Below, in pieces: positions 10,748-64,000 of a stretch of DNA of 64,000 nucleotides. Source of the DNA: Cetobacterium sp. ZOR0034 (GTDB lineage: Bacteria > Fusobacteriota > Fusobacteriia > Fusobacteriales > Fusobacteriaceae); the NCBI RefSeq assembly GCF_000799075.1, contig NZ_JTLI01000007.1, forward strand, positions 1 to 64,000. Reading direction: 5' to 3'. Position 1 is the stretch's first letter. The number at the start of each line of letters is the position of its first letter. Made by a program: the position numbers and the translations under genes. The notes under the pieces were generated by a model. The model made no database searches. It saw only the letters and a list, made by a program, of their open reading frames with translations, and was not told the DNA's origin.

Positions 10748-10776
10748 TTGACAATATTTGTGAAATATAGTACAAT
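10748..10776 (+). promoter_or_regulatory. Promoter of the purine riboswitch/permease unit
   Basis: A consensus TTGACA (10748-10753) is followed after 17 bp by TACAAT (10771-10776). The predicted start near 10783 lies only about 12 nt before the riboswitch P1 stem. Confidence 0.85.
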
Positions 10777-10794
10777 ATTCTGTATTTTTGATCA

Positions 10795-10861
10795 CTGATA
10801 TAATCCTGCAATAAGGGCAGGAGTTTCTACAAGCCGCCGTAAATGGCTTATTATTAGGAGG
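10795..10861 (+). ncRNA. Purine riboswitch, predicted adenine class
   Basis: All core elements of the purine aptamer are visible. P1 is CTGAT (10795-10799) with ATTAG (10853-10857). J1/2 reads ATAAT. P2 is CCTGC with GCAGG, and L2 ends in GG (10815-10816). J2/3 contains GTTTCTAC, and P3 is AAGCC with GGCTT. L3 contains CCGTAAA, with CC at 10837-10838 to pair with the L2 GG. The nucleotide that reads the ligand (position 74 in the B. subtilis xpt numbering) is T10851, which in known members gives adenine rather than guanine specificity. AGGAGG (10856-10861) begins inside the P1 3' strand, so ligand binding should hide part of the ribosome binding site. Known: the aptamer class. Inferred: ligand and off-switch mechanism. 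Confidence 0.9.
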
Positions 10862-10865
10862 AGTA

Positions 10866-12194
10866 ATGGAGAACATTAAACAAAAGAATAATGGTGTGCT
10901 AGGGGCTATTGATTCTTATTTTCAACTTAGCCAACACAACACTACAATTTCAACAGAATTAACTGCTGGAATTACAACATTTATGACAATGGCATACATT
11001 TTAATAGTTCAGCCTCTATTCATGAGCGCTGCTGGAATGGATGTAAAAGCTGTTACTATTGTAACTGCGATACTATCAGCTGCATTTTCAATCGTTATGG
11101 GACTATATACAAATAGACCTTTTGCCATGGCACCAGCTATGGGAGGAAATGCTTTCTTTGCTTATACTTTAGTTGCCGGAGGAATGGTAACTTGGGAAAC
11201 AGCTATGGGAATGGTATTTCTATCAGGAATAGGATTTTTATTATTAACAGTTCTTGGATTAAGAGGACTTATAGTAGAAGCGATTCCTAAAAATTTAAAA
11301 TTTGCTATTGGAGTAGCTGTAGGATTCTTCATAGCTATGGTAGGATTTAAAAATGGTCAAATAATGACTATTGGAAACGGGACAATCTCTATGGGAAGCA
11401 TCTCTAATCCAAATACCATACTATCTTTAATCGGACTTTTCATAACAATTGCACTTGTTTTAAATAAAGTAAAGGGCGGAGTTTTAATTGGTATAGTTAT
11501 TACAACTTTACTTGGAATTCCAATGGGGATCACTCAGATACCTGAGAGTTTCTTCTCTATGCCTCCATCAATATCTACAATAGCTTTCAAGCTTGATATT
11601 ATGGGATCATTAAAATTTGCATTTATACCCCTTATATTCACATTTTTCGTAGGAGATTTCTTCTGCACTCTTGGAACACTTCTTGGAGTATCTGCTCAAG
11701 CAGGACTTTTAGATGAGGATGGAAATCTACCAGAAGTAGATAAACCATTTTTAGTAGATTCTATAGCAACTATTGTAGGAGCATTATTTGGTTCAACAAC
11801 AATAACAACATTCTTAGAATCTGCAGCTGGAGTTGAAGAGGGAGGAAGAACAGGGTTAACTGCAATCTCAACTGGAATATGTTTTATATTTACTATATTT
11901 TTAACACCTATAGTTTATATAATTCCATCTGCTGCAACAGCACCAGCTTTAATTTTTATTGGAATTTTAATGATGACAAGCATTAAATTTATTGACATGG
12001 ATGACATGACTGAATTCGTTCCTGCTGTTATCACGATTATGTTTACAATTTTTACTGATAATATGGCCTCAGGAATGAGTATGGGAATAATATCTCATGT
12101 TATTATCAAATTTTTAACTGGAAGATATAAAGAGCTAAATGCTCCTGTGTTAATTTTAACACTGCCATTACTTGGTTATTTTATCTTTTTATAG
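10866..12194 (+). CDS. NCS2/AzgA-PbuG family purine permease
   Basis: This 442-residue polytopic membrane protein of the AzgA/PbuG branch of nucleobase transporters takes up adenine, guanine or hypoxanthine by proton symport. The N-terminal TELTAGITTFMTMAYILIVQP segment is a family hallmark, as is PAMGGNAFFAYTLV. A dozen or more hydrophobic helices fill the rest, and the GALFGSTTITTFLESAAGVEEGGRTG motif region (about 310-335) carries substrate and ion contacts. It sits directly behind the purine riboswitch. The adenine-type position 74 makes adenine a likely substrate. It is a single-gene unit ending in a bidirectional terminator. Confidence 0.93.
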   Translation: MENIKQKNNGVLGAIDSYFQLSQHNTTISTELTAGITTFMTMAYILIVQPLFMSAAGMDVKAVTIVTAILSAAFSIVMGLYTNRPFAMAPAMGGNAFFAYTLVAGGMVTWETAMGMVFLSGIGFLLLTVLGLRGLIVEAIPKNLKFAIGVAVGFFIAMVGFKNGQIMTIGNGTISMGSISNPNTILSLIGLFITIALVLNKVKGGVLIGIVITTLLGIPMGITQIPESFFSMPPSISTIAFKLDIMGSLKFAFIPLIFTFFVGDFFCTLGTLLGVSAQAGLLDEDGNLPEVDKPFLVDSIATIVGALFGSTTITTFLESAAGVEEGGRTGLTAISTGICFIFTIFLTPIVYIIPSAATAPALIFIGILMMTSIKFIDMDDMTEFVPAVITIMFTIFTDNMASGMSMGIISHVIIKFLTGRYKELNAPVLILTLPLLGYFIFL

Positions 12195-16302: not shown

Positions 16303-16380
16303 AATAAAAAAGACTCCTACCCTTAAAAAAGAGTAGGAGTCATTAGCTTTACGCGTTTAATGGCGAACTCCATCGCCTAT
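16303..16380 (-). ncRNA. Fluoride riboswitch (crcB motif) with built-in terminator
   Basis: On the minus strand the leader reads GGCGATGGAGTTCGCC (from 16377), then ATTAAACGC, then GCTAATGACTCCTAC: nearly the class consensus. GGAG in the first hairpin loop can pair with CTCC in the last segment to form the pseudoknot of the fluoride-bound aptamer. That same segment (16341-16333) is the 5' arm of a 9-bp terminator stem (3' arm 16320-16312) followed by TTTTTT. Fluoride binding should therefore prevent termination and turn on the antiporter gene. Confidence 0.95.
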
Positions 16381-16396
16381 TTATTAATCTAGAATT

Positions 16397-63730: not shown

Positions 63731-63759
63731 TTGACTTTTAACATAATAAAGAGTATAAT
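63731..63759 (+). promoter_or_regulatory. Promoter of the tandem-repeat leader RNA
   Basis: TTGACT (63731-63736) and TATAAT (63754-63759) are exactly 17 bp apart. RNA would start near 63766, some 20 nt before the repeat array. Confidence 0.85.
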
Positions 63760-63765
63760 TTATTA

Positions 63766-63934
63766 AAGTAAAGGTGAACTAGCACCTAAAAAACCTAAAA
63801 TTTAAATCAGACATAAGGGCTGATACCGTTGGTAGGCAACAGAAAAACCTAAAATTTAAATCAGACATAAGGGCTGATACCGTTGGTAGGCAACAGAAAA
63901 ACTAGAAGTTAAAGACCACTTTAAAGTGGTCTTT
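63766..63934 (+). ncRNA. Structured leader RNA with tandem units and terminator-like hairpin
   Basis: The leader begins with a small hairpin, AGGTG/CACCT (63772-63787), followed by two exact 54-nt units and then a 12-bp palindromic hairpin (63911-63934) with a weak T tail. Each unit can form two stems (ATCAG/CTGAT and GTTG/CAAC). CCTA at the start of each unit is complementary to TAGG in the second loop. No known RNA class is recognised. See the findings for the candidate interpretation as a tandem aptamer. Confidence 0.6.
63789..63896 (+). repeat. Two exact 54-bp tandem repeats
   Basis: Unit 1 spans 63789-63842 and unit 2 spans 63843-63896, identical over all 54 bases. The five A that start each unit recur after unit 2 (63897-63901), followed by CTAG rather than CCTA. 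Confidence 0.97.
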
Positions 63935-63942
63935 ATATTTTC
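63911..63942 (+). terminator. Possible attenuator hairpin of the leader
   Basis: A 24-bp perfect palindrome (63911-63934), AAAGACCA and TGGTCTTT around CTTTAAAG, is followed by ATATTTTC. The T tail is imperfect. It ends 11 nt before AGGAG. Confidence 0.6.
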
Positions 63943-63955
63943 ATTAGGAGACTAT

Positions 63956-64000
63956 GTGAATACAAATATTAATAAAAAAGATATTTTAAAGAAACTAAAA
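63956..64000 (+). CDS. 5' end of an unidentified gene behind the tandem-repeat leader
   Basis: Fifteen codons are visible, starting with GTG 5 nt after AGGAG (63946-63950) and reading NTNINKKDILKKLK before the window ends. An ATG two bases earlier is followed at once by a stop codon, so GTG is the likely start. The product cannot be identified from this length. Confidence 0.6.
   Translation, partial: MNTNINKKDILKKLK

What the first reader, a model, noticed from the sequence alone, without database searches (positions are those of the whole stretch)
63766..63955. Candidate new tandem regulatory RNA: two identical 54-nt units in one leader
Seen: a consensus promoter (63731-63759), two exact 54-bp tandem copies, a perfect 24-bp hairpin, then AGGAG and a GTG start. 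Each unit can form ATCAG/CTGAT (nine-nt loop), then GTTG/CAAC (loop GTAGG). CCTA near the unit start is complementary to TAGG in that second loop, so each unit could close as a pseudoknot. A 54-nt compact domain, repeated in a leader before a terminator-like hairpin, is the layout of tandem riboswitches such as glycine or guanidine-II. I cannot match it to a known class. Exact identity of both units could instead reflect recent duplication.
Basis: partly seen in the sequence, partly recalled or inferred. Interest (0 to 1): 0.85.

Follow-up and report, generated by a model that had tools for sequence, protein, structure and literature searches.

The report
Repeat-RNA antitoxin with predicted nuclease toxin
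The two repeated RNA units are not a metabolite sensor but look like the RNA antidote of a self-contained poison-antidote cassette, whose poison is a predicted RNA-cutting protein of a family (PBECR4) not previously tied to RNA antidotes in any paper I could search.

Summary
In detail: two identical 54-nt units (63794-63847, 63848-63901) follow a near-consensus promoter and precede a terminator hairpin and a GTG gene. The tandem-riboswitch reading does not hold. The gene (63956 to contig base 64585, read from the whole genome) is a PBECR4 predicted RNase (Pfam PF18813, 1.2e-21). Diverged arrays of the same design precede PBECR4 genes in another genus of the family (4 units), in Lactiplantibacillus, Enterococcus, Pediococcus and Macrococcoides plasmids and in Streptococcus, Enterococcus and Erysipelothrix phages. 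Both unit stems covary (37 double-change cells, 0/500 shuffles). A close relative has the empty site: the module is an 837-bp insert holding promoter, RNA, terminator and toxin, nothing else. Some arrays stand alone without any PBECR4 gene, unlike a riboswitch. Best explanation: a type III-like toxin-antitoxin module with a new toxin family and a new RNA fold class. Toxicity, neutralisation and RNA processing are inferred, not shown. Rfam, PADLOC and open-access literature hold no match.

The parts
63731..63759 (+). sigma-70-type promoter TTGACT-17-TATAAT; its first bases lie at the left junction of the insert
   Evidence: junction
63772..63787 (+). 5' hairpin H0 (AGGTG/CACCT), loop AACTAG carrying L0 = CTAG (63779-63782)
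   Evidence: same element in other arrays
63794..63847 (+). unit 1: P1 CCTA 63794-63797; stem-loop ATCAG 63806-63810 / CTGAT 63820-63824; hairpin GTTG 63828-63831 / CAAC 63837-63840 with loop GTAGG (L1 = TAGG 63833-63836); A-rich AGAAAAA 63841-63847
63848..63901 (+). unit 2, identical: P2 CCTA 63848-63851; stem-loop 63860-63864 / 63874-63878; hairpin 63882-63885 / 63891-63894 with L2 = TAGG 63887-63890; A-rich 63895-63901
63902..63905 (+). P3 = CTAG, complementary to L0 of the 5' hairpin
63910..63935 (+). intrinsic-terminator-like hairpin between RNA and toxin gene
63946..63950 (+). ribosome-binding site AGGAG
   Evidence: sequence
63956..64000 (+). start (GTG) of the PBECR4 gene, 209 aa; runs on to contig base 64585 outside the window (L007:457-1086)
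63735..64000 (+). left part of an 837-bp insert (contig 63735-64571) absent from the nearest relative

Best explanation
A type III-like toxin-antitoxin module. One promoter makes an RNA of two 54-nt units plus a 5' hairpin; most transcripts stop at the terminator and give RNA antitoxin, while read-through makes a little of the PBECR4 endoribonuclease. The RNA folds into H-type-like pseudoknots (4-bp stem, loop pairing with a tetramer beyond an A-rich linker) and closes on itself through ordered loop-strand pairs, and binds and blocks the nuclease; loss of the RNA, for instance after phage attack or loss of the element, would free it. Shown: unit structure, covarying pairs, gene identity, cassette-like presence and absence, spread on plasmids and phages, arrays without the gene. 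Inferred: toxicity, direct neutralisation, read-through, cleavage of the array by the toxin, trigger.
For: Gene is PBECR4, E 1.2e-21; [quoted passage not shown] Layout promoter-repeats-terminator-nuclease gene is that of type III operons (PMC5086642). Homologous arrays precede PBECR4 genes in G018 (4 units), G066, and plasmids and phages of Bacillota. Stems covary: 96.8% paired, 37 double-change cells, 0/500 shuffles. Loop-strand pairs covary: 98.4% paired, 20 double-change cells, all 8 pairs with double changes, 0/500. Protein-blind find: a DNA pattern that left three bases of each loop free found a viral contig whose array shows all three predicted pairs (CCTAG:CTAGG, CCTG:CAGG, TAGG:CCTA) and is followed by a PBECR4 gene (7.4e-21). 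Empty site in a close relative. 13 array-linked toxins fall in one clade, 100/99 support, which also holds 9 other rows. One-base L1 and A-rich L2 resemble the CptI antitoxin pseudoknot (PMC4627078).
Against: No experiment. No sequence relation to solved type III toxins; AlphaFold model too poor to use (pLDDT 56, three-row alignment). PADLOC has no model that matches. Many other PBECR4 genes have single-copy, unrelated-looking upstream RNAs, so repeats are not general in the family. My terminator scan is permissive: 32 of 42 PBECR4 loci against 24 of 52 ordinary genes. Seven of 11 genomes with an array carry no PBECR4 match.
Confidence: 0.82

Rival explanations
1. Tandem riboswitch or other cis-acting leader: the two units sense a small molecule and control termination or translation of the downstream gene.
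For: Promoter, tandem compact domains, terminator hairpin and ribosome-binding site in order.
Against: Downstream gene is a predicted RNase of mobile elements, not a metabolic gene; arrays with promoter and terminator but no following PBECR4 gene in G325, G459 and G445; no Rfam riboswitch match; conservation lies in stems, loop ends and A-rich linkers rather than a fixed pocket; unit number varies 1, 2, 4.
Confidence: 0.06
2. Autoregulatory RNA-protein module without toxicity: the RNase binds and cleaves its own leader repeats to set its level, serving the phage or plasmid in counter-defence.
For: PBECR domains were proposed as phage effectors against host or CRISPR RNAs (PMC5512222); multi-domain PBECR4 proteins exist as long open frames.
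Against: Stand-alone gene travels with the RNA as a minimal cassette on a bacterial chromosome; RNA arrays persist without the gene.
Confidence: 0.09
3. The RNA is a required cofactor or guide of the nuclease (as in other ncRNA-linked defence proteins) rather than its inhibitor.
For: Structured RNA next to a nuclease gene on mobile elements; the same genomic layout would be expected.
Against: RNA-only loci; resemblance to CptI and ToxI arrays.
Confidence: 0.05

Closest known systems
Type III toxin-antitoxin systems, CptIN family (Eubacterium rectale, PDB 4RMO)
   Same: Tandem RNA repeats (two, of 45 nt against 54 nt here), terminator, then an endoribonuclease gene; H-type pseudoknot with a one-base L1 and an A-rich long L2.
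   Different: Toxin is PBECR4 (predicted BECR fold) with no sequence match to a solved type III toxin; each unit carries an extra stem-loop of about 5 bp; array ends pair with each other through ordered tetramers.
ToxIN / AbiQ (Pectobacterium, Bacillus thuringiensis, Lactococcus)
   Same: Repeat RNA antitoxin, terminator and nuclease; carried on plasmids, once on a prophage.
   Different: 34-36-nt repeats; ToxN is a Kid-like fold; no stem-loop between pseudoknots in the passages read.
PBECR domains of polyvalent phage proteins (Iyer et al. 2017, PMC5512222)
   Same: Same protein family, with solo versions noted in phages and mobile elements.
   Different: The term RNA antitoxin does not occur in that paper; it proposes host or phage mRNA or CRISPR RNA as targets.
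Glycine and guanidine-II tandem riboswitches
   Same: Tandem small RNA domains in a leader (own knowledge).
   Different: No Rfam match, no metabolic or transport gene, gene-less arrays, keys that pair across units.

Membership tests
Type III toxin-antitoxin | RNA made of tandem repeats upstream of the toxin gene, one promoter | tested here: met
   2 units here, 4 in G018, 2 in about ten further loci; promoter by consensus only
Type III toxin-antitoxin | Rho-independent terminator between repeats and toxin | tested here: met
   63910-63935, 11-bp stem; also seen in relatives
Type III toxin-antitoxin | Pseudoknotted RNA antitoxin | tested here: met
   by covariation of loop-strand pairs; no solved structure
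Type III toxin-antitoxin | Toxin is an endoribonuclease | tested here: inconclusive
   Pfam PBECR4 is a predicted RNase; activity unknown
Type III toxin-antitoxin | Toxin cleaves the repeats and is inhibited by direct RNA binding | not testable with these tools
   needs bench work
ToxIN / CptIN / TenpIN (named families) | Toxin homologous to ToxN, CptN or TenpN | tested here: not met
   only PBECR4 in Pfam above cut-off; no PADLOC match; no significant PDB match by sequence
Known riboswitch class | Match to an Rfam model | tested here: not met
Known riboswitch class | Downstream genes in a metabolic or transport pathway | tested here: not met
   PBECR4 genes, or no consistent adjacent gene

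The most novel reading that the evidence does not exclude
A new branch of RNA-antitoxin systems: PBECR4 nucleases as a large toxin family kept in check by several unrelated RNA classes. In this class the RNA carries a palindromic order of 4-6-nt loop and strand keys (L0:P3, P1:L2, L1:P2), so that only a complete transcript can close, which would make antitoxin activity depend on RNA integrity.
Probability: 0.4. Interest if true: 0.85.

Novelty: new variant of a known kind. Interest (0 to 1): 0.77.

Why it matters
Type III toxin-antitoxin systems were sorted into three toxin families (ToxN, CptN, TenpN; PMC4627078). A predicted BECR-type nuclease with a covarying repeat RNA, spread over phages and Enterococcus plasmids (76 records in one search), would widen the class, give a role to an uncharacterised Pfam family, and supply a testable RNA architecture in which the two ends of the array recognise each other.

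Tried and rejected
Riboswitch: rejected as above. Recent duplication only: rejected, since diverged arrays keep 53-54-nt units and structure. Viral scans with the window, L. plantarum and E. faecium proteins found no relative. One search aligned hand-trimmed sequences and is not used. Terminator and folding survey of PBECR4 upstream regions: enrichment is modest, so it is weak support only. G448 pair assignment is ambiguous for two equal CTTG segments (rank 2 of 24).

Full report
Observation. The window holds two identical, abutting 54-nt units at 63794-63847 and 63848-63901, a promoter TTGACT-17-TATAAT at 63731-63759, a perfect 26-nt palindrome at 63910-63935 that folds as an 11-bp stem, AGGAG and a GTG start at 63956. 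Rfam has no match in this region that reaches a family's gathering score. The full leader folds better than its shuffles (z -3.07).

The gene. The window ends 45 bases into it, so I read on in the whole genome: 209 codons to contig base 64585. It matches Pfam PF18813, PBECR4, at 1.2e-21 over nearly the whole domain. PBECR domains were described in polyvalent phage proteins and as solo proteins of phages and mobile elements, predicted metal-independent RNases with a His in the first helix and a C-terminal Thr or Ser (PMC5512222). Nine aligned stand-alone relatives share an invariant H-L-x-G, and most keep P-x-[ST] near the C-terminus.

Relatives of the RNA. In G018, another genus of the same family, 4.3 copies of a diverged 54-nt unit precede a terminator and a PBECR4 gene. 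In G066 two 53-nt units do the same. Searches with the protein brought arrays of the same design in Erysipelothrix phage phi1605, L. plantarum plasmids, E. faecium and E. durans plasmids, Streptococcus phage Javan100, a Macrococcoides plasmid, an Enterococcus phage and a Pediococcus plasmid (genes checked against Pfam for several).

Structure by covariation. Every unit has a free tetramer P, a stem-loop of about 5 bp with a loop of mostly 9 nt, a 4-bp hairpin with a 5-nt loop carrying L, and an A-rich linker. Across 14 units the two stems are 96.8% paired, 8 of 9 pairs have changes on both sides, 0 of 500 shuffles reach the observed covariation score, and slid versions collapse to 22-42% paired. 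The loop and free segments pair in the order L0:P3, P1:L2, L1:P2, which is nested. In eight arrays P1:L2 and L1:P2 are 98.4% paired, all eight pairs have double changes, 0 of 500 shuffles. Among the six ways to assign three loops to three segments, the nested one is the sole best in 12 of 14 arrays and tied in two whose keys repeat. Caveats: these arrays are not all independent (Javan100, L126, L128, L. plantarum and Macrococcoides are close); the segments were picked by hand; the rule was formed on the first few loci and then held in loci found later. Examples: Enterococcus phage CAGG:CCTG, CTCA:TGAG, CGAG:CTCG; Pediococcus ATCAAG:CTTGGT, CCAG:CTGG, CTGA:TCAG; phi1605 GCTTGA:TCAAGC, CTTG:CAAG, TTGG:CCAA. 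In the window the keys are CTAG:CTAG, CCTA:TAGG, TAGG:CCTA. G066 L0 and G264 L0 lack a clear hairpin and are weaker.

Protein-blind tests. A DNA pattern that fixed the 4-bp hairpin stems and A-rich linkers but left three bases of each loop open found one viral contig; its array has all three predicted pairs and the next gene is PBECR4 at 7.4e-21. A covariance model of the unit found arrays in 6 of 98 genomes of the class and 5 of 400 of another class. Four lie upstream of PBECR4 (G000, G018, G066, G448); in seven genomes no PBECR4 match was found. G325, G459 and G445 are strong arrays with no PBECR4 gene behind them. In G448 two one-unit halves lie 295 nt apart and have cross-matching keys, GGTGGG:CCCACC and CAGG:CCTG.

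Cassette. In G010, of the same genus, the flanks are 93-96% identical and contiguous; the window's locus has 837 bp more (contig 63735-64571) between AAATTG and AAAAAGTGG. The extra DNA is the -10 part of the promoter, the array, the terminator and nearly the whole gene. So RNA and gene come and go together, with nothing else.

Family background. In a tree of 46 PBECR4 domains, the 13 array-linked toxins fall in one clade (100/99) together with four genes without this array type and the phage polyvalent proteins; 24 stand-alone genes with other upstream sequences form the other side. The upstream regions of those others look structured, some are tandem (L074, L077, L085), and none of those tested is in Rfam. 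This suggests, but does not show, that PBECR4 genes are generally paired with RNAs; a control survey shows only modest enrichment of terminators and folding.

Interpretation. Promoter, repeat RNA, terminator, nuclease gene, mobile carriage and pseudoknots match the description of type III toxin-antitoxin operons (PMC5086642), and the pseudoknot with a one-base first loop and an A-rich second loop resembles CptI (PMC4627078). It is not a ToxN, CptN or TenpN relative by any search made. Hence: it works like a type III system (likely), belongs to none of its three named families, and full membership awaits proof of toxicity, neutralisation and processing. Searches of open-access papers for PBECR, PBECR4 and type III combinations found no report of such a pairing; most preprints and subscription journals were not covered, so prior description cannot be excluded.

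Noticed in passing
window 10776-10873 (+): Purine riboswitch (RF00167, 59 bits).
   Followed up: no
window 16327-16386 (-): Fluoride riboswitch (RF01734, 58 bits).
   Followed up: no
L045, L046, L057, L059, L061, L063, L065; L047/L060; L049/L052/L055; L053/L054/L062; L058: Several other structured-looking, terminated sequences without Rfam match lie directly upstream of PBECR4 genes in the same class of bacteria: candidate further RNA antitoxin classes.
   Followed up: partly
L074, L075, L077, L085: Long (about 90-150 nt) tandem repeats upstream of PBECR4 genes in Bacilli.
   Followed up: no
L118, L119, L120, L122, L109, L110: Arrays without a PBECR4 gene nearby, with intact key pairs in several; possible orphan antitoxins or remnants.
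   Followed up: partly
L128: A gene-less array sits just upstream of a second, different repeat sequence (AGCTATCAAGATGGGTAGCGAG twice) and another PBECR4-like gene.
   Followed up: no
L066:1459-2060: The PBECR4 gene of Erysipelothrix phage phi1605 carries an in-frame stop.
   Followed up: no
L053, L054, L062: 22/44-nt direct repeats (TGTAGTAAGTAATGTTACA) further upstream of PBECR4 genes in the same genus.
   Followed up: no
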